Origin: Deltaproteobacteria bacterium | Lineage (GTDB): Bacteria; Desulfobacterota; Desulfobacteria; Desulfobacterales; Desulfatirhabdiaceae | Direction: 5' to 3' | Assembly (NCBI GenBank): GCA_016219185.1 | Contig: JACRBZ010000066.1 | Location: 62,001-126,000 of the forward strand | DNA length: 64,000 nucleotides | Part shown: positions 3,865-27,243 of the stretch, piece after piece | Numbering within the stretch: the stretch's first letter is position 1 | How the letters are laid out: every line of letters starts with the position of its first letter | Translations under genes and position numbers: made by a program | The notes under the pieces: model-generated | Database searches by the model: none | Seen by the model: only the letters and a program-made list of their open reading frames with translations | What the model was told of the DNA's origin: nothing

Positions 3865-4749
3865 TCAGGTGGCCAGGGCGACTCGCCCGCGATGGGCCAG
3901 GAATCCTTCAACGCCGAAGATAATCAGCGCGATCCATACGATCCCGAAGCCGATGAGTTGATCGTGGTTGAACGGTTCCCGATAGATCAGCACCCCGATC
4001 AAAAATTGCAGGGTGGGGGTGATGAATTGCAGGATTCCCACAAGGGAGAGCGGGATGCGCTGCACCGCCGATGCAAACATCAGAAGCGGAACGGTTGTTA
4101 TCAGTCCCGCGCCGGCCATCAGCAGATCGGATCCCGAGCCGGTATGCAGAAATGCCCCCTGGCCCATGCCGTCGGCGTGAACGAGATAGAGCAGGGCGGG
4201 CAGAAGCAAAATGCCCGTCTCCAGGGTCAGGCCGTAGAGAGCGCCAAGCGGGGCCGTTTTTTTGACCAGGCCGTAGAGGCCGAAAGAGAGCGCCAGTGTC
4301 AGGGCAATCCAGGGAAGTCTGCCATAGGTGAAGGTCAAATAGAGGACGCCCAGCGCCGATAGCCCGATTGGAACCCACTGAAAGGAGCGCAAGCGCTCGC
4401 GCAGGAAAATAACACCCAGAAAAATACTGAGCAGAGGGTTGATGAAATATCCCAGACTCGATTCGACGATAAAACCATTGTTGACGGCCCACACATAAAT
4501 CAGCCAGTTGATGCCGACCAGAAGCGCGGCGGCGGTGTAGACGCGGACAACCGACGGCTTCAGAGCGGCCATGCGAAACTCCCGCGACCGGCGCATGAAA
4601 AAGATGATGCCAACCAGAATGAGGCACGACCAAAAAATGCGGTGGCAAATCAATTGCAGCGCTGGGACATGCTTAAGCCATTTCCAATACAGCGGAAACA
4701 GCCCCCATATCACATAAGCTCCCGCAGCACGCCATGTTCCTTTGTTCAA
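3865..4749 (-). CDS. rarD: EamA-family transporter RarD
   Basis: A 294-residue, very hydrophobic protein with about ten predicted membrane segments. The start (GAYVIWGLFPLYWKWLKHV) and the HRIFWS motif are typical of RarD within the DMT/EamA superfamily of inner-membrane transporters. The substrate is unknown. The start codon is TTG at 4749, preceded by AGGAGA at good spacing. No other in-frame start fits. A fragment of this gene is repeated at about 23537-23642. Confidence 0.9.
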   Translation of the reverse strand: MNKGTWRAAGAYVIWGLFPLYWKWLKHVPALQLICHRIFWSCLILVGIIFFMRRSREFRMAALKPSVVRVYTAAALLVGINWLIYVWAVNNGFIVESSLGYFINPLLSIFLGVIFLRERLRSFQWVPIGLSALGVLYLTFTYGRLPWIALTLALSFGLYGLVKKTAPLGALYGLTLETGILLLPALLYLVHADGMGQGAFLHTGSGSDLLMAGAGLITTVPLLMFASAVQRIPLSLVGILQFITPTLQFLIGVLIYREPFNHDQLIGFGIVWIALIIFGVEGFLAHRGRVALAT

Positions 4750-15592: not shown

Positions 15593-18232
15593 TCAGAGTC
15601 TTGGGTCAACCGGTTCACTCTCCAAAGCCAGCACCCCGAAAACGCATTCGTGCACTCGCCTGAGCGGCTCTTTTCGCACAAAGCGCTCCAGGGCTTCCAC
15701 GCCAAGCGCAAACTCCCTTAAGGCAAGGGAGCGCTTTGGCCCCAACGATCTTGATCGAAGCCTGTCAAGATTTTCTTCGAGCGTGTATTCAGGACCGTAG
15801 ATGATCCGCAGGTATTCGCGACCGCGACACTTGACGGCAGGCTGAACCAGGCCCTTCTTCCCTCTGCTTATGAAGTCATGGGGCTTTACCACCATGCCTT
15901 CGCCCCCCTTTCCGGTAAGATCTTCCCACCACCTGCATGCGGCCGCCATGCTTTGTTCATCGTCTACATCAACGACGCTGAAAGATGTGGATAGCAGGAT
16001 TTCCTCTGAAGCCGCACAAATCCTTGAAATGATGTTCATGTGCCATTTGTGATCCTTGTCCACATGAACCTGGCCCTCGGTGGCAAGAACATGAAATGGA
16101 GCAATCCGCAGGTCTTTGAGTGAATTCACTGGCCAGCAGTATTGTTGATAGGCCGTGATGTAGCTCTCAACGGTGTCTTTGCGCGCCTCGCATTTTTTCA
16201 AGAGATCATCGATCTTGAATTCGCGGGCTGTACCTTCGGCTGACGGCTTGAAGCCGATATCGAGGTCAATCCGGGATCCAGCCATCCGAAGATTTTCGAT
16301 GGCCGCTGAAAGGGATGCCGTTGCAGCAGCGCCCACAGCGGCGTATTGTGTTTTTAAGAGCTCTTTGGCTTTCTCCGACCATGGCATCAGTTCGCAGTCC
16401 AGACATATCCATTCAGTCGAGAATTCGGACCAGAAGTCCAAAGCATCGAGTGCGCCGCGGATGATCGCCAGAAGTTCCTGTTCAAGGGCAAGGTCGCTGA
16501 AAAACCGCCGACCGGTCCGGGTGTAAACAATGCCGATTCCCTCGTTTCGAACACCGAAACAGCGCATGGCGGCAGCCTCGTTTTTGCACACGATCACGAC
16601 CGCTCGGGAGCCCATGTGTTTCACCTGACAAACGACGCGAGGGATGCCATTGGCGCGGTAATAGGAAAAAGCCTCTTGCGGATACTCAAGATAGCCTTCC
16701 CTCCGGCTCGTTTCGGTCGGAGACATGGTGGGCGGCAGGTAGATGAGCCATTTGGGATTTGCCGCATAACGGCTCATGACCTCCAGGGCCGCAATGGCAT
16801 TGGCCTCGCGGATGGTTACATTCGAACGAAGGCGGGTGGTCACCAAACGCTTGCCCAGAACATCTTCGGCATCGAGCAGGTCATCGTGGTACTGCTGGGA
16901 TGTCATGGCGGCTGATTCCGATTCTCCGCCCTGATGCTTGAACGGCCGTGCCGGTTCACAGTATATGCGCCGGGCAGGGACTGAAACCAGTTCTTTTTCA
17001 GGATAACGCAGGGCGGTGAGTTTACCGCCAAAGACACAGCCGGTATCGATGTTGATGGTCCTGTTCAGCCATTCAGCCTCGGGTACGGGCGTATGGCCAT
17101 GGACCACAATGGCGGGCCCGCGATATTCGGCGGCCCAGTTGTGCCTTACGGGAAGGCCGAACGCATCGATCTCACCGGTTGTCTCGCCAAACAGACAGAA
17201 TTCTCGAACCCTCGCAGATCCGCGACCCTGCATTTCTTGCTTCAGGCCGGCATGGGCCACGACAAGTCTGCCGCCGTCCAGAACGTAATGACTGATCAGA
17301 CCATCGATAAAGCGCTTGATCTCCCCAATGAAAGCGCCTCCCGCGTCCTTGTCCAGAGCGTCTATTTCCCGCATGGTTTCCGCAAGGCCGTGGGTGATCT
17401 GCACGTCCTTTCCGTTGAGCTTCCGAAGGAATTTTATGTCATGGTTTCCAGGCACACAGAGGGCGCTGCCGGAATTGACCATGTTGGTGACGAGCCTGAG
17501 AGTTGCAAGTATTGCCGGACCCCGGTCCACGATATCGCCAAGGAAAATCATCATCCGGCCTTCGGGATGCGAGTAAATCGGACCGGCCATGGGGTTTTCC
17601 GGATTCCGGCTGCCTGGCGTATATCCGAGCTTTTCAAGAAGTTCCGTGAGCTCATCGAAGCAGCCGTGAAGGTCTCCGACGATATCGAAGGGTCCCTTGA
17701 GATTGTTCCTGTCGTTCCACATGGCTACCCTTTCGACGATTGTGCCATTGGCATCCGCCTCAGTTGAAATCGTATGGATGTGCCTGAATCCTTCCTTTTT
17801 CAGACCGCGCAAGGAACGGAGAAGCTGTGAATGCTGCTGCCTGATGACATGACCTCCAAAATCCCTGTCGGGGCGCGACCTGTTCCGATCCTGACAGATT
17901 TTTTCAGGAAGATCGAAGACGATGGCCACGGGGATGGCATGGTATTCCCGCGCCAGGGAAATGAGGGGTTTTCTGGCCTCGGGCTGCACATGGGTAGCAT
18001 CCACAACGGTGAGTCTGCCCGCGGCGAGCCTTTTGGATGCGATGAAGTGCAGCACTTGAAAAGCCGCGTCTGTTGCAGCCTGATTGGTCTCATCATCCGA
18101 TACGAGAGCGCGGCAATAGTCGGACGACAAAATCTCGGTTCCTTTGAAGCACTTCTTCGCGAAAGACGACTTCCCGGAGCCTGACACCCCGATAAGCACC
18201 ACAAGGGATAATTTGGGTATTTTTATTTCCAT
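15593..18232 (-). CDS. pnkp: Polynucleotide kinase-phosphatase-adenylyltransferase Pnkp (RNA repair)
   Basis: At 879 residues this matches the length of characterised bacterial Pnkp. The N-terminal 5'-OH kinase has the P-loop GVSGSGKSS and SSDYCR. The central metallophosphoesterase (2',3'-phosphatase) has DIVGDLHGC, FLGDIVDRGP, PGNHD and VVHGHTP. The C-terminal ligase-like adenylyltransferase has the nucleophile lysine in VKHMGSRAV and later motifs GMVVKPHD and LVQPAVKCRG. Pnkp heals and, with Hen1, seals broken tRNA or other RNA. I chose the start at 18232 (AGGTAGGA upstream). The longer ORF overlaps the hen1 end. Confidence 0.95.
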   Translation of the reverse strand: MEIKIPKLSLVVLIGVSGSGKSSFAKKCFKGTEILSSDYCRALVSDDETNQAATDAAFQVLHFIASKRLAAGRLTVVDATHVQPEARKPLISLAREYHAIPVAIVFDLPEKICQDRNRSRPDRDFGGHVIRQQHSQLLRSLRGLKKEGFRHIHTISTEADANGTIVERVAMWNDRNNLKGPFDIVGDLHGCFDELTELLEKLGYTPGSRNPENPMAGPIYSHPEGRMMIFLGDIVDRGPAILATLRLVTNMVNSGSALCVPGNHDIKFLRKLNGKDVQITHGLAETMREIDALDKDAGGAFIGEIKRFIDGLISHYVLDGGRLVVAHAGLKQEMQGRGSARVREFCLFGETTGEIDAFGLPVRHNWAAEYRGPAIVVHGHTPVPEAEWLNRTINIDTGCVFGGKLTALRYPEKELVSVPARRIYCEPARPFKHQGGESESAAMTSQQYHDDLLDAEDVLGKRLVTTRLRSNVTIREANAIAALEVMSRYAANPKWLIYLPPTMSPTETSRREGYLEYPQEAFSYYRANGIPRVVCQVKHMGSRAVVIVCKNEAAAMRCFGVRNEGIGIVYTRTGRRFFSDLALEQELLAIIRGALDALDFWSEFSTEWICLDCELMPWSEKAKELLKTQYAAVGAAATASLSAAIENLRMAGSRIDLDIGFKPSAEGTAREFKIDDLLKKCEARKDTVESYITAYQQYCWPVNSLKDLRIAPFHVLATEGQVHVDKDHKWHMNIISRICAASEEILLSTSFSVVDVDDEQSMAAACRWWEDLTGKGGEGMVVKPHDFISRGKKGLVQPAVKCRGREYLRIIYGPEYTLEENLDRLRSRSLGPKRSLALREFALGVEALERFVRKEPLRRVHECVFGVLALESEPVDPRL

Positions 18233-18254
18233 TTTTATTCCTACCTTCACCAGG

Positions 18255-19661
18255 TTATCCAGCGAGAGTAAAAATGCACAATTGGGTCGGAGAACCATAT
18301 CGTTCATCCACCGGACCGACTGGGGAAAATTTCGTGTCATAGCCATATCTTCTTGAGACTGTCATTGCCCAATCGTGGAATTCCCGGCGCGTCCACTCAA
18401 AACGATGGTCCTTGTGGCGGAGCCTATCGACCCCATTATTCTCCCACAGGACGTTGTATTCACGGTTCGGTGTCGTGAGAACGATTGTGCCGGGACGGGC
18501 GAACTCAAAGAGCATTCTTCCGAAGGACTCCAGGCGCGGCGCATCGAGGTGTTCCACCACCTCCACGACAGCAGCGGCGTCGTATCCATCAAGACGCCTG
18601 TCCCGGTACATGACAGAGCCATGCAAAAGCTCAATCCGTTCCTTCTGCCCGGTTGGCAGCTCGTTCAGGCGCAGGCGTTCGGAGGCGATCTCCAATGCCC
18701 GGAACGAAACATCCAGTCCGACGATCTTAGTGAACTGCTTTTCCTTAAGAAGCAACCGTAGCAACTTTCCTTTTCCGCAGCCAAGATCGAGAACACGCTC
18801 GGCGCTGGATGCTCTCAGAATCTCCATGACTGCCTCAAGCCGTTCTTCATCGAGGTTTATCGCCCTTTCCATCGTATCTTCAGAATGCGCATCATTCCTG
18901 TCGTTATCCGCCTCCTGCTCGGCAGGGTTGATATCCATCAGTCTGGCAAGCGCTTCCTCGGCGTAGCTCCGTTGATATTTGAGATATCGTTTTGCGATGT
19001 TTTCCCTTTCAGGATGCGCCGCAAGCCATCCTTCGCCGTGTCTCAACAGCTTATCGATTTCATTTCTGTCTACATAGTAGTGTTTCTGGTTATCGAGGAC
19101 GGGAATGAGCACGTAGAGGTGTTTGAAAAGCTCGACCACCGTTGTCTTTTTTGAAATCTCCACCGTGTAATAGATGCTGTCTCCCCACTCGGAGAACTTT
19201 CTGTCCAGCTCATGACGCCGTGCCTTGACATTGTAGCCAAGGGGCTCAAAGAGTCCATGCAGGAACTGTTCACCACTGCGACAGGGCAAAACCGACATCT
19301 TGGCTGACAGGGGCATCCTGGCATCCACCAGTTCAGGCTTTTGTCTACATCTGCCGTTGAGCGTCTGGCCAAAGCACCGCGAGAGGGCCACACTCATGAA
19401 CGAAGAAATCACGTAGGGTCGATCGTTTACATACTGTTCAAGAGGTGTCCCGGCATTGGCGTTGTTTTTGCCTCTCACGAGGTCCACGGGATCAACATCA
19501 AGCAGGATGGCGACGGTGCACGCCTCGGCCGTTGCCACCGGATAGAACACATGCACGGTACCGAAATGCAGCCTGGTTGCCTGACACCGATAAGGATTCT
19601 TGTGTAGCAGGTATCCCAGGTCTGTTGCCGGTTTATGCGTTGTTGTCAGCGTCAGGAGCAT
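18255..19661 (-). CDS. hen1: 3'-terminal RNA ribose 2'-O-methyltransferase Hen1
   Basis: The 468-residue product begins MLLTLTTTHKPATDLGYLLH, the characteristic start of bacterial Hen1. The N-terminal half activates Pnkp ligation in known systems. The C-terminal methyltransferase shows the SAM loop VLDLGCGKGKLLR, the metal-binding EVVEHLD and TTPNREYN. Hen1 methylates the 2'-OH at the break before sealing, making repaired RNA resistant to a second cut. The start follows AAGGT. An alternative ATG lies two codons upstream. Pnkp begins 22 bases downstream, completing the classical repair cassette. Confidence 0.95.
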   Translation of the reverse strand: MLLTLTTTHKPATDLGYLLHKNPYRCQATRLHFGTVHVFYPVATAEACTVAILLDVDPVDLVRGKNNANAGTPLEQYVNDRPYVISSFMSVALSRCFGQTLNGRCRQKPELVDARMPLSAKMSVLPCRSGEQFLHGLFEPLGYNVKARRHELDRKFSEWGDSIYYTVEISKKTTVVELFKHLYVLIPVLDNQKHYYVDRNEIDKLLRHGEGWLAAHPERENIAKRYLKYQRSYAEEALARLMDINPAEQEADNDRNDAHSEDTMERAINLDEERLEAVMEILRASSAERVLDLGCGKGKLLRLLLKEKQFTKIVGLDVSFRALEIASERLRLNELPTGQKERIELLHGSVMYRDRRLDGYDAAAVVEVVEHLDAPRLESFGRMLFEFARPGTIVLTTPNREYNVLWENNGVDRLRHKDHRFEWTRREFHDWAMTVSRRYGYDTKFSPVGPVDERYGSPTQLCIFTLAG

Positions 19662-19681
19662 CGTCATTACCTTGTAATTAA

Positions 19682-20029
19682 TTATGTTTTTTCTTTGAAT
19701 TGCGCATAGATATAATTGGGCGCCATGTCGAAAAACTTGAGCAATGCCGGACAAAGCCAGCCTTCCATGTCCAGAAGTTTGGAATAGTACCAGTTGCCAT
19801 CGGATTCTTCACGTCGCCGCTGAAATTCAATCTGATGTCCAGGAAACGGGGTTGACGAAAACAATAGGGTAAATCCTTTTTCTGCATTATTGATTTCAGC
19901 CACCATCTTTTCGATAACGTCGTCGGCGCCGGAAACAAATGGCTCTTGAAACAATCCCAATCTCTCATCGTCAAATACCCATGTGCCATTATATTTGTAT
20001 GGGTGTATCACGTTGATTACGTTAGCCAT
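19682..20029 (-). CDS. DUF6717-like protein, first gene of the RNA-repair run
   Basis: A 115-residue soluble protein with a strong AAAAGGAGA ribosome-binding site. It opens MANVINVIHPYKYNGTWVFD and contains GADDVIEKM and a TPFPGHQIEFQRRREE stretch, resembling the DUF6717 family of unknown function. Its stop is 20 bases before the hen1 start on the same strand, so it is likely the leading gene of the operon. No role is known. Co-transcription with hen1-pnkp is inferred. Confidence 0.72.
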   Translation of the reverse strand: MANVINVIHPYKYNGTWVFDDERLGLFQEPFVSGADDVIEKMVAEINNAEKGFTLLFSSTPFPGHQIEFQRRREESDGNWYYSKLLDMEGWLCPALLKFFDMAPNYIYAQFKEKT

Positions 20030-23204: not shown

Positions 23205-23536
23205 TATAACGGTAGAAAATAGCCAATGTTTTCTTTTCGAAAACATTGGCTATGATGGAGGGAATTGACCTGAAAGACTGAATGACAAAAATGAAAAATT
23301 ACATTTTCATATTCAGTTTTTCATCATCAGTTGCGCGACCGCCTTTTCCAGGCCGTCGATGGACAGTTCAAACATGGGAAAGATGCGGCCGATGGCCGAA
23401 ATGCTCGGAGTGTAATTCCACATGGAAACCGGGGCCGGATTTAGCCAGACACAGTGCTTGAAGGTTTCGGACAAAAATTTCAGCCGCTCGATGCTGGGTT
23501 TGGAAGTGCGCTCTTCAATGTGATGGAGCCGTCCTG
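23205..23536 (-). pseudogene. Partial duplicate of the VWA-protein gene 3' end and its terminator
   Basis: The minus-strand frame gives [20 protein letters not shown], then WNYTPSISAIGRIFPMFELS and the same AVAQLMMKN ending as the intact gene at 26050-27243. The similarity continues downstream through the terminator-like hairpin (23221-23251, a perfect 13-base stem, AGCCAATGTTTTC). Only about 75 codons of coding sequence are present, so this is a stray 3' copy. At its upstream edge it is fused to a rarD fragment. Confidence 0.8.
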
Positions 23537-23642
23537 GGCCCGATGGGAAGCCACTGAAAGGGGCGCAAGCGCTCGCGCAGGAAAATGACACCCAGAAAAA
23601 TACTGAGCAGGGAATTGATGAAATACCCGGCTCGATTCGACA
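23537..23642. repeat. Duplicate of an internal rarD fragment
   Basis: About 105 bases match rarD positions 4362-4467, including GCGCAAGCGCTCGCGCAGGA and ACACCCAGAAAAATACTGAG, with a few substitutions and a 2-base indel near the end. It abuts the VWA fragment without a gap, so two unrelated gene pieces have been joined. No coding function is expected. A G10 run follows at 23668. Confidence 0.8.
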
Positions 23643-23715
23643 TCATCCTTGTCCAGAGATGGATACAGGGGGGGGGGTGAACTCCCATCACCCGATTATA
23701 AATAATTTCATATGG

Positions 23716-24519
23716 TTATTTGCAAAGCAATCTTTGGAGTTCAGATAGTTGTACACGCGAAGTCAAATCAACACTCAAAGGCGTAACAGACACAAACCTG
23801 TCAATTGCAAAAGCATAAATATCTGATTCAGGGTCAAGTTCCGCCCCATTAATATTTATGATAGTTTTTCCATCACCTATTCTGCTTTTAATTGTAGGAT
23901 TTTCGATGGCTTTTGAATAATAACTTACCTTTGCTAACCTGGTGATTTTGAATTCAGTTAACAGAGTGGCATCACTAGGGACGTCAATTTTCAAAACATC
24001 GACATCGGATTGTATTTTTTTCGATAATAGAGATTTTGCAAAACGATTCAGGAAAAATGATGATGCCGTCCAATCCTGATCCGTATATCTGTGATGGGAT
24101 TCAATATCGGTTTGTTTGGATATTGCTATACCAGGTATGCCAGAGCTCGCCCCTTCAAGTGCTGCACCGATAGTGCCTGAGCTTGTAATGTTGATTCCAA
24201 GATTTTCTCCATAATTAATTCCAGAAACAAGCAAATCAGGAATATTTTCTTTGAATATCGTTCTTAAACTATGTCTGACAATTAGAGCAGGTGAACACTC
24301 ACAGTGATAAGCTGGAATTTCCCTTCCGTTTATTTGATATTCAATGGGTTTGAGACATGATAATTTGTCTCCGGTTAAGCCACGCCCGGTTCCTGTTTGC
24401 TGATGGCTTGGAGCAACAATTGTTACATTTCCAATGTCTATCACTGCCTTAACTGCAGCTCGGAGACCAGGTGATTCAATTCCATCATCATTCGTTATTA
24501 AGATATTGTAATTTCGCAT
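23716..24519 (-). CDS. surE: 5'/3'-nucleotidase SurE
   Basis: The 267-residue product has the SurE active-site pattern: ILITNDDGIESPGL near the N-terminus, VAPSHQQTGTG, LVSGINYGENLG and SSGTIGAALEG. SurE enzymes dephosphorylate nucleoside 5'- and 3'-monophosphates using a divalent metal held by the two aspartates. Length is normal. It is clearly more AT-rich than the core genes here and lies directly next to a probable attC site, so it may be a mobile cassette copy rather than the housekeeping gene, which usually sits beside pcm or rpoS. Confidence 0.9.
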   Translation of the reverse strand: MRNYNILITNDDGIESPGLRAAVKAVIDIGNVTIVAPSHQQTGTGRGLTGDKLSCLKPIEYQINGREIPAYHCECSPALIVRHSLRTIFKENIPDLLVSGINYGENLGINITSSGTIGAALEGASSGIPGIAISKQTDIESHHRYTDQDWTASSFFLNRFAKSLLSKKIQSDVDVLKIDVPSDATLLTEFKITRLAKVSYYSKAIENPTIKSRIGDGKTIININGAELDPESDIYAFAIDRFVSVTPLSVDLTSRVQLSELQRLLCK

Positions 24520-24537
24520 TAACTTTTGATTTATTGA

Positions 24538-24598
24538 TTCTAACGCTGGGCATCAGTAGGCGCGCGCTTTTGCGATCTGCTGTATGCCTTTGTTAGCA
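24538..24598. mobile_element. Probable integron attC recombination site
   Basis: The 61-base segment runs TTCTAAC-GCTGGGCATCAG ... CTGCTGTATGCC-TTTGTTAGCA. The outer TAAC/GTTA core sites and inner GGCATCAG / CTGTATGCC boxes form the imperfect palindrome typical of attC sites, with a GC-rich centre (GGCGCGCGCTTTTGCGATC) as the variable loop. It lies between surE and the HEPN-like gene, as expected for a cassette boundary. No integrase gene or second attC site was found in the window. Confidence 0.62.
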
Positions 24599-24695
24599 AT
24601 GCATTTTTGAGATTCAGGTAAAGATCCTTCGCACTATTATTCACCATATATACGAAAATTATTAGCTGAAAATAAGTTCTGATATAACAATTTAA

Positions 24696-25213
24696 TTATT
24701 CTCTGAGCTGCTTCAGTTCACGAAGGAATGAAGACGGTTCAAACCCATTTGGTCCAGACCACGGTTGTCCTTCCTTATTCTGTGGATATCTGTATTTTTG
24801 ATCATGAGGATTGTCCTTCTCAAACTTTTCAATTATGATTTTATATTCTTTTACTTTGTCTGGCTCGATATTAGAAAAATCTGGCTCCTCTGATGTAATA
24901 AATAGAAGATAGAACATGTATTTTTTACCCGGATAGAGATTTTTGTATCTGTTGTTGAGAGTCCCGATGTTATGTGTTGTCCCCACATTTTCCTCGGGAA
25001 CCGATTTTAAAATCGCGCCCTTTAGAAATAATTCGGTTGCGTGAAATGCAAGATACAATACAACGGAGCCCCTTACATATGTTGCCTTCTTGGTCGATCT
25101 TGCCAGTACAGTACATAAGCGAATAGCTGAAGATATGCGTTTGAAAATGTCGAAAACTGCTCGGGCACAGCCAAATTCACAACTTCTGAGTCGATTAACA
25201 TGTTCCATTCCAT
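24696..25213 (-). pseudogene. HEPN-like hypothetical protein, probably frameshifted near its N-terminus
   Basis: The body contains VRGSVVLYLAFHATELFLKG, resembling the helix of HEPN-type proteins, then a polar C-terminal half. The ORF-track start (25208) gives an odd N-terminus. Starting from the ATG at 25213, preceded by GAGGGG, the other frame gives a more natural sequence (AVPEQFSTFSNAYLQ) that would join the main frame near 25130 with one indel. It follows parE by about ten bases on the same strand and precedes the attC site. AT-rich. It is either a decayed gene or a sequencing error, and I would not assign a function. Confidence 0.5.
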
Positions 25214-25223
25214 GGATTGCCCC

Positions 25224-25541
25224 TCACACTGCTAATAATATTCGTTCTGCCTGTATTTCATCTACAGGCAGAATTTGTTTTCTATGCCGAACAGTAAGCA
25301 TTGATATTTTGTCTTTCTCAACTCTGTAAATGATACGATAATTTCCATAAATCAATTCACGAATATCTTCTCTTTGTATTTCTGGAACTATCCGACCACT
25401 CTTTGGTGAAGATTTGAGGAGTTGAACCTTGTCGAACAAGGTTTCTACCCATTTTGCTGCAGCCAAAGGATTGTCCCGAGCTATGTATTCTGAAATTTCT
25501 GTTGCCCTGTCTATCGCGAGAGGGGACCATATGATTTTCAT
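25224..25541 (-). CDS. parE: ParE/RelE-superfamily toxin
   Basis: A 105-residue protein with the ParE pattern: IIWSPLAIDRATEISEYIA, SPKSGRIVPEIQREDIRELI and YGNYRIIYRVEKDKISMLTV followed by RHRK. ParE toxins poison gyrase, while RelE relatives cleave ribosome-bound mRNA. The sequence favours ParE because of the EIQREDIRELIYGNYRI segment. It is encoded directly after a Phd/YefM-type antitoxin with a four-base overlap. Intact. Confidence 0.85.
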   Translation of the reverse strand: MKIIWSPLAIDRATEISEYIARDNPLAAAKWVETLFDKVQLLKSSPKSGRIVPEIQREDIRELIYGNYRIIYRVEKDKISMLTVRHRKQILPVDEIQAERILLAV

Positions 25542-25819
25542 TTTCCGATCCGTCCCAGAATTGCAGCCTTGGCTTCATTATGTTCAATGCCAGCCCCAGC
25601 ATTAATTTGTGCTATGGCTGTTTGTACGTCCTCCAATAACTCAATCTTTTCTTGCATGGATTCATACTCTGCAACATCAAGTAATACAGCGACACCTTTG
25701 CCATGCTGGGTAATGACTAGCGGTCTCTTTGTGTCATGCACTTGTTTTAGAAAAGAAGCAATTCCAGTTCGGAACTCTGACATTGGACGAATGTCTTGAT
25801 CGATTTTTAATCTCTGCAT
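25538..25819 (-). CDS. Phd/YefM-family antitoxin
   Basis: Starting at 25819 after AAGAGGT, the 93-residue product reads MQRLKIDQDIRPMSEFRTGI and then RPLVITQHGKGVAVLLDVAEY. This is the DNA-binding fold of Phd/YefM antitoxins, with a disordered toxin-binding C-terminus (NEAKAAILGRIGK). The ORF track adds 20 upstream codons that overlap the promoter. It should repress its own operon and neutralise ParE. Confidence 0.87.
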   Translation of the reverse strand: MQRLKIDQDIRPMSEFRTGIASFLKQVHDTKRPLVITQHGKGVAVLLDVAEYESMQEKIELLEDVQTAIAQINAGAGIEHNEAKAAILGRIGK

Positions 25820-25849
25820 AATGCACCTCTTGGTAGTTTTTTTTAGTAC

Positions 25850-25879
25850 ATTATACCGTACGTCATATCGTTTAATCAA
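25850..25879 (-). promoter_or_regulatory. Promoter of the phd-parE operon
   Basis: On the minus strand TTGATT and TATAAT are separated by 18 bases, ending about 30 bases before the antitoxin start. The spacer holds TACGTACGG-like dyad sequence that may be the Phd operator. Confidence 0.55.
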
Positions 25880-25969
25880 GTTTGTTCTTGTTGAGCATAA
25901 TGCTCATCCGACTCCAAACTATTGCGTACGCCCGGCACGGGCGTGAACTAATCATTCTTGAAAAAACCA

Positions 25970-26005
25970 ATGATTCCTTTTCGAAATCATTGGTTGTGAT
26001 GAGGG
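25970..26005 (-). terminator. Rho-independent terminator of the moxR-VWA operon
   Basis: On the minus strand AACCAATGATT and AATCATTGGTT form an 11-base stem followed by a T run (TTTTTTC), 45 bases after the VWA gene stop. A copy of this hairpin exists at 23221-23251. Confidence 0.75.
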
Positions 26006-26049
26006 ATTGGCTTGAAAAACTGAAACGATGGATAATTATAAATCCATTA

Positions 26050-27243
26050 TCAGTTTTTCATCATCAACTGCGCGACTGCCTTTTCCAGGCCGTCGATGGA
26101 CAGTTCAAACATGGGGAAGATGCGGCCGATGGTTGAAATGCTCGGGGTGTAATTCCACATGGAGACCGGGGCCGGATTCAGCCAGACGCAGTGCTTGAAG
26201 GTTTCGGACAAAAATTTCAGCCGTTCGATGCTGGGTTTGGAAGTGCGTTCTTCAATGTGAATGGAGCCGTCTCTGGCCATGAGTTCATAAGGGGCCATGC
26301 TGGCATCCCCGAGCAGAATCAGCCGGGTGTCCGGGTCAAAGGCGGCAAATTCCTCCACTCGCTTGGGTTCCTTGTATCGGGACGCGTCTTTCCAGAGGGT
26401 ATCATAGATGGTGTTGTGGAAAAAAAATGTCTTGATGTCTTTGAACTGGGCTTTGGCGTAATCAAACAGGGTCTGCACCACCTCGACATATGGATCCATG
26501 GACCAGCCGCCGTTGTCGATGGCCAGAATCACCTTGAGCCGGTCTTTCAGGCTTCGGTCAAAGACGATTTCAATTTCCCCGGCGTTTTTCATGGTCTGGT
26601 AAATGGTGGATTCCACATTCACACGGTCCTTGGGACCGGAGGGGACCAGGTGTCGCAGGCGTTTGATGGCCTCTCCGACCATGGCCTGGGTCAGGGGGCC
26701 GTCCAGGGAATAATCCTTGTACCGCCGCTCCATGGCGACCTTTATGGCGGAACGGTTCCGGGACATGCCGCCCACCCGCATGCCGCCGGGGTGATGTCCG
26801 GAATGACCCACAGGGGACGTGCCGCCGGTTCCGATCCACTTGCTGCCGCCGTCGTGCCGCTCGGTTTGTTCTTTGAGGCGCTCCTTGAAATATTCGATGA
26901 GCTCCTCGGGCGTCATTTTTTTCAGCTCCGCTTCATCGATGCCCAGGGCATCCGCCAGGAGTTTGGGGTCCTGCAGCCAGGTGTCCAGCAGATTTCTGGC
27001 CATTTCATCCAGGGCAAACCCCTCCTGATCCGGCATTTCCGTGCCCTTGAAATGATGGGCAAACACCTGATCGAACAGATCGAAATACCGCTCGCTCTTC
27101 ACCAGTATGCATCGGGAGGCTGTGTAAAAATCTCCAAGGCTGCCGACCAGTCCCTGCCGAAGCGCCCGATGCAGGGTCAAAAACGACGTGGGGCTTACGG
27201 GGATGCCGGCTTCCTTGATCTGATAAAAAAAATCCACAAACAT
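26050..27243 (-). CDS. VWA-domain protein of the CoxE-like family
   Basis: A 397-residue cytoplasmic protein. The N-terminal half (FVDFFYQIKEAGIPVSPTSF) and a glycine-rich linker near residue 145 lead to a von Willebrand factor A-like domain with VILAIDNGGWSMDPYVEV. The MIDAS motif is DNGGWS rather than the usual DxSxS. Downstream, a small MoxR/VWA chaperone logic is expected: these pairs act in metal insertion or complex assembly, but the client is unknown here. It follows the moxR gene by about 70 bases on the same strand. Its 3' end is duplicated at 23205-23536. Confidence 0.85.
   Translation of the reverse strand: MFVDFFYQIKEAGIPVSPTSFLTLHRALRQGLVGSLGDFYTASRCILVKSERYFDLFDQVFAHHFKGTEMPDQEGFALDEMARNLLDTWLQDPKLLADALGIDEAELKKMTPEELIEYFKERLKEQTERHDGGSKWIGTGGTSPVGHSGHHPGGMRVGGMSRNRSAIKVAMERRYKDYSLDGPLTQAMVGEAIKRLRHLVPSGPKDRVNVESTIYQTMKNAGEIEIVFDRSLKDRLKVILAIDNGGWSMDPYVEVVQTLFDYAKAQFKDIKTFFFHNTIYDTLWKDASRYKEPKRVEEFAAFDPDTRLILLGDASMAPYELMARDGSIHIEERTSKPSIERLKFLSETFKHCVWLNPAPVSMWNYTPSISTIGRIFPMFELSIDGLEKAVAQLMMKN

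What the first reader, a model, noticed from the sequence alone, without database searches (positions are those of the whole stretch)
23716..25879. Probable integron cassette boundary: attC-like site between surE and a HEPN-like gene, beside phd-parE
The 61-base palindrome has TAAC/GTTA cores and the GGCATCAG-type inner boxes of attC sites. The flanking genes are AT-rich, and toxin-antitoxin pairs are frequent cassette cargo that stabilise integron arrays. No integrase is visible, so it may be an orphan (CALIN-like) cluster or a single cassette inserted at a secondary site. A surE cassette would be unusual.
Basis: partly seen in the sequence, partly recalled or inferred. Interest (0 to 1): 0.6.

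Follow-up and report, generated by a model that had tools for sequence, protein, structure and literature searches.

The report
Decayed integron cassette array, attC confirmed
The palindrome is a genuine integron recombination site (attC) marking the edge of a captured gene cassette, in a small, decaying, integrase-less array in a sulfate reducer; this is ordinary for its order, though the boundaries can be read almost base by base.

Summary
Window 24538-24598 is an attC site; its gene-sense strand is minus, the same as phd, parE, the HEPN-like gene and surE. A covariance model trained on 12 attC sites from relatives, without this site, finds it at 31.0 bits (E 3e-5 in 183 kb); nothing else in the window is significant. 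The decisive evidence is cassette homology: two IMG/VR contigs share 90.7% DNA identity with window 24542-25235 only, starting at the crossover point of one attC and ending at that of the next. The HEPN-like gene is therefore one gene cassette (24544-25235). Relatives of phd-parE in the order also sit between attC sites, with the parE stop codon inside the attC. In the window that attC has collapsed to about 20 bases and ParE reads seven codons onward. The HEPN-like gene is frameshifted and has a premature stop. surE follows the intact attC, but its own attC is missing and its cassette status is unproven. An integron integrase lies 66 kb away on the same contig but lacks its catalytic C-terminus; about 20 or more further attC sites are elsewhere in the genome. 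This is a decaying single-attC remnant: a new member of a known kind.

The parts
24538..24598 (-). attC site of the HEPN-like cassette (gene-sense strand minus): R'' GCTAAC, L'' GGCATACAGCAG with one extrahelical A (a T on the recombining bottom strand, which is the window + strand), L' CTACTGATGCC, R' GTTAGA; crossover G^TT between 24544 and 24543
   Evidence: CM R1, trained without it: 31.0 bits, E 2.9e-5, E 9.6e-7 with filters off; DNA fold of the + strand shows R-box pairing and the one-base bulge
24544..25235 (-). HEPN-like gene cassette, crossover to crossover
   Evidence: 90.7% identical to L150/L151 over window 24542-25235 only, ending at the crossovers of two flanking attC sites there
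24696..25208 (-). HEPN-like ORF, probably a pseudogene: 4-nt deletion near the 5' end and CAA->TAA near the 3' end relative to L150
   Evidence: nucleotide alignment, protein alignment; 4 of 292 genomes of the order, the own one included, have a match
25229..25253 (-). collapsed attC of the phd-parE cassette: R'' GCAGAAC (GCATAAC in relatives), no hairpin arms, then crossover A^TTAGCA; the parE stop (TAA inside R'') has become GAA
   Evidence: comparison with relatives whose parE stop lies in an intact attC
25224..25541 (-). parE toxin gene; native end after ...DEIQA, extended by seven codons (ERILLAV) into the HEPN-cassette leader
   Evidence: Pfam PF05016; most relatives end at residue 98
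25538..25819 (-). phd antitoxin gene
   Evidence: Pfam PF02604, TIGR01552
25849..25879 (-). in-cassette promoter TTGATT-18-TATAAT of phd-parE, with GTAC-type symmetry retained in relatives
   Evidence: consensus scan, upstream alignment of relatives
25895..25909 (-). probable right-arm remnant of the attC before phd (GGATGAGC^ATTATGC); cassette start about 25900
   Evidence: relatives have ...GTTATGCC at this position; not found by the CM; inference
23716..24519 (-). surE-like nucleotidase gene directly after the attC (start codon about 24 nt past the crossover); its own attC is missing
   Evidence: TIGR00087; rare: 4 of 292 genomes of the order at 1e-40 including the own one, only the own genome of 395 across the phylum at 1e-50
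23217..23537 (-). second copy of the vWA gene 3' end plus terminator hairpin (87% identical to about 25956-26281), flanking the array on its far side
   Evidence: blastn
23538..23641 (-). internal fragment of an EamA/RarD-type transporter gene that directly follows the vWA gene in a same-genus genome
   Evidence: blastn to L097/L122, Pfam EamA

Best explanation
This is a short, decaying integron cassette array on the minus strand without an adjacent integrase: [phd-parE cassette, attC collapsed] - [HEPN-like cassette, attC intact] - [surE-like gene, attC lost or never present]. Working mechanism (established for integrons, inferred here): the bottom strand of the attC (window + strand) folds into a hairpin with an extrahelical T. 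An integrase supplied in trans could cut at G^TT and join the cassette to another attC, an attI or a genomic attG site. Phd-ParE has its own promoter and probably acts as an addiction module. Shown here: attC identity and polarity, exact ends of the HEPN-like cassette, cassette membership of phd-parE relatives, loss of the phd-parE attC hairpin, HEPN-like gene decay, truncated intI on the same contig. Inferred: past IntI-mediated capture, remaining recombination competence of the attC, ParE activity despite its longer tail, surE as a cassette.
For: CM hit of 31 bits, blind to this site, on the gene-sense strand. Training sites come from arrays next to intI and show paired changes (32 cells with changes on both sides against 13.0 in shuffles). 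Homology with L150/L151 confined to crossover-to-crossover. Four other HEPN-like relatives have attC beside or near the gene (L143, L144, L145, L148). phd-parE relatives have attC at the parE stop (L153, L154, L155, L158, L164, L181), and three of these also upstream of phd. intI relic at C44:19904-20839 ending ...VVQELMCPIL, so without the C-terminal His and Tyr. Other attC clusters in the genome. 135 of 292 genomes of the order carry intI above the curated cut-off. The HEPN-like cassette is absent from seven same-genus genomes.
Against: Only one attC passes the model in this locus. No attC is found after surE or before phd. Crossover bases at the two decayed junctions read A^TT, not G^TT. 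surE relatives do not lie near attC. The vWA 3'-end duplication on the far side shows that a non-integron rearrangement also shaped the locus.
Confidence: 0.92

Rival explanations
1. A single cassette inserted by IntI at a genomic secondary (attG) site near the 3' end of a native phd-parE operon, with surE as the other flank.
For: The junction inside the parE 3' end lacks a recognisable attC and reads A^TT; insertion of cassettes at attG sites is established (Loot et al. 2024, cited in PMC12901181).
Against: phd-parE relatives are themselves attC-bounded cassettes whose parE stop sits in R'', and the window keeps a recognisable R'' (GCAGAAC) exactly there.
Confidence: 0.08
2. A chance palindrome or an ordinary terminator/repeat between unrelated genes.
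For: Inverted-repeat scores of this size occur by chance; the folding z-score is weak.
Against: Model score of 31 bits on the correct strand, no T-run after the hairpin, and cassette-exact homology with attC-flanked DNA elsewhere.
Confidence: 0.01
3. The array reached this place by homologous or illegitimate recombination of a DNA piece carrying a vWA 3' end (single-crossover type), not by integrase action at this locus. This concerns how the array arrived and is compatible with the cassette reading.
For: vWA 3' end plus terminator is present on both sides of the array, 87% identical, with a broken EamA fragment at the far junction.
Against: The duplication could be older or younger than the array; no donor was found.
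Confidence: 0.4

Closest known systems
CALIN (cluster of attC sites lacking an integron integrase; IntegronFinder 2.0, PMC9024848)
   Same: attC-bounded cassettes with no adjacent intI, genes in the attC orientation
   Different: only one attC is still recognisable, below the default threshold of two; that paper states that single-attC CALINs can be true positives
Toxin-antitoxin cassettes of sedentary chromosomal integrons (e.g. the 19 in Vibrio cholerae; PMC11023631)
   Same: a TA pair with its own promoter inside a cassette
   Different: this phd-parE cassette has lost its attC hairpin and its toxin gene reads into the next cassette
'Integron cassette HEPN' family, PDB 3JRT (Anantharaman et al. 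2013, PMC3710099)
   Same: an all-helical HEPN-like protein carried as an integron cassette
   Different: no sequence match to 3JRT, only a marginal structural match (probability 0.08); no Rx4-6H motif seen among the invariant columns

Membership tests
Integron gene cassette / attC | R''/R' core boxes with paired L''/L' arms and extrahelical base(s), found by a structure model | tested here: met
Integron gene cassette / attC | attC polarity matches the cassette gene, attC downstream of the gene | tested here: met
   attC on the minus strand, 98 nt after the HEPN-like stop
Integron gene cassette / attC | cassette ends at the G^TT crossover points | tested here: met
   homology with L150 ends at both crossovers
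Integron gene cassette / attC | recombination by IntI | not testable with these tools
   needs an assay
CALIN | at least two attC sites close together (default threshold) | tested here: not met
   one model hit; second and third sites collapsed
Complete integron | intact intI with attI beside the array | tested here: not met
   intI is 66 kb away and C-terminally truncated; no other TIGR02249 match above cut-off in the draft genome
phd-parE as an integron cassette | relatives bounded by attC on both sides | tested here: met
   L155, L158, L181
surE as an integron cassette | attC downstream, or relatives in arrays | tested here: not met
   no attC at 23641-23716, none near relatives
HEPN superfamily | HEPN helical fold | tested here: inconclusive
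   AlphaFold2 mean pLDDT 78; best PDB match sacsin HEPN, probability 0.92, E 0.22
HEPN superfamily | Rx4-6H catalytic motif (absent in some HEPN families) | tested here: inconclusive
   no such motif seen among the invariant columns of 10 relatives

The most novel reading that the evidence does not exclude
Loss of the attC hairpin between parE and the HEPN-like gene has fused an addiction module and its neighbour into one composite cassette with a single attC, so the pair would move together, with ParE now terminating on the neighbour's leader sequence. This would be a natural example of how multi-gene cassettes arise by attC collapse.
Probability: 0.3. Interest if true: 0.4.

Novelty: new member of a known kind. 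Interest (0 to 1): 0.3.

Why it matters
It confirms from raw sequence a single-attC remnant that default integron annotation would drop, and shows a way to prove such sites: cassette-exact homology. It also documents decay stages (dead intI, collapsed attC, frameshifted cargo) and an unnamed HEPN-like cassette family found in Desulfobacterales, Nitrospira and Sulfuritalea. It does not change the understanding of integrons.

Tried and rejected
Ungapped inverted-repeat scanning missed the site because of the extrahelical base; gapped scanning found it but not above chance. Rfam gave nothing relevant. DNA search for a second copy in the genome found none, as expected for a single cassette. The C71 recombinase next to attC sites was considered as a live integrase and rejected: TIGR02249 below cut-off, and the contig ends inside it. 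Genomes without a strong intI match were tried as negative controls for the model, but they carry attC clusters of their own, so they were no use as controls. Viral-contig search for ParE found no relative; the one for SurE found only a 30% match with no attC. Literature search for surE cassettes gave no relevant paper, since the gene name is also an English word.

Full report
Observation. The palindrome is at 24538-24598. The genes around it, all on the minus strand, are phd (25538-25819), parE (25224-25541), a HEPN-like ORF (24696-25208) and surE (23716-24519). They have 38-40% G+C against 52-56% in neighbouring core genes.

Is it attC? Simple palindrome statistics do not decide: sequences with the same dinucleotide content give arms as good, and the fold of the + strand is only 1.2 sd better than shuffles. 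I therefore searched 292 genomes of the order for the integron integrase (135 above the curated cut-off), fetched arrays beside intI and picked 12 short attC sites from them. A covariance model was built from these without the window site. The training set shows many paired changes (32 cells against 13.0 +- 2.7 in shuffles). The model hits window 24598-24538 minus at 31.0 bits, E 2.9e-5 over 183 kb; with filters off, the next match in the region has 11 bits. Polarity is right: gene, then attC, on the same strand, with the extra unpaired base in the left arm of the gene-sense strand.

Proof of the cassette. A search for relatives of the HEPN-like protein found eight loci in genome contigs and two in IMG/VR contigs. 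In L150 and L151 the gene lies between two attC sites, 3932-3979 and 4611-4672. DNA homology with the window is 90.7% and covers only window 24542-25235 = L150 3974-4668. Its ends are the TT of the upstream attC (L150 ...CGAG^TTAGCAG) and the GTT of the downstream attC. This is the signature of one mobile cassette. Relatives in L143, L144, L145 and L148 are beside or near attC too, while seven same-genus genomes lack the cassette.

The neighbour parE. The cassette start (TTAGCAG, 25235) lies inside the called parE ORF. Most ParE relatives end at residue 98 (...DEI-x-A) with a TAA that is part of the attC R'' box (GGCATAAC...), and the model finds attC there in L153, L154, L155, L158, L164 and L181; L155, L158 and L181 also have one upstream of phd. 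In the window the corresponding sequence is GGCAGAACGAATATTA^TTAGCAG (25229-25253). R'' is recognisable, the stop has become GAA, the arms of the hairpin are gone, and ParE continues seven codons to a TGA in the next cassette's leader. So phd-parE is a second cassette whose attC has collapsed. Before phd, GGATGAGC^ATTATGC (25895-25909) matches where relatives have the end of the previous attC, but this is inference.

Decay. Against L150, the HEPN-like gene has a 4-nt deletion near its start and a CAA->TAA change near its end, so it is probably inactive. The intI gene on the same contig, 66 kb away, ends ...VVQELMCPIL and lacks the C-terminal catalytic His and Tyr. Other integrase fragments are on C47 and C16. 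Further attC sites occur in clusters on C15, C33, C29, C55, C58, C71 and other contigs.

surE. It starts about 24 nt after the crossover, as cassette genes do, but it has no attC of its own, and its rare relatives (3 other genomes of 292 in the order) have none nearby. I put surE as a cassette at about even odds.

Flanks. The end of the vWA gene with its terminator occurs on both sides of the array (23217-23537 and about 25956-26281, 87% identical). The far copy is joined to a fragment of an EamA-type gene that in G220 directly follows vWA. A single-crossover-like integration or an old tandem duplication would explain this; neither is shown.

Known context. Integrase-less attC clusters are common, and single-attC ones can be real (PMC9024848; PMC9668308). 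TA cassettes with their own promoters are known (PMC11023631), as are HEPN cassettes (PMC3710099). The HEPN label here rests on a weak structural match. Verdict: real and correctly interpreted; a new member of a known kind.

Noticed in passing
window 15593-19754 (-): Adjacent Pnkp (kinase-phosphatase-ligase) and Hen1 genes: a bacterial Pnkp/Hen1 RNA-repair pair (PNKP_ligase E 1.2e-180, Hen1_L E 4.2e-108).
   Followed up: partly
window 23217-23641: Duplicate of the vWA gene 3' end and terminator fused to an internal fragment of an EamA-type transporter gene; scar of a rearrangement.
   Followed up: partly
L150/L151 (IMG/VR UViG_3300038679_000373 and 3300037046_000297): Contigs classed as viral that carry integron attC sites, the HEPN-like cassette and a HEPN/Toprim-type gene next to it; either phage-borne cassettes or misclassified bacterial DNA.
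   Followed up: no
G000:C44:19904-20839 (L017:14904-15839): Integron integrase relic truncated before the C-terminal catalytic residues, with no attC array beside it.
   Followed up: partly
G010:C1:1822165-1836161; G070 scattered sites: Genomes without a strong intI match nevertheless carry attC clusters or scattered single attC sites.
   Followed up: no
L142-L149: Unnamed HEPN-like protein family (no Pfam or NCBIfam model) in Desulfobacterales, Nitrospira, Sulfuritalea and Desulfurivibrio, several members next to attC.
   Followed up: partly
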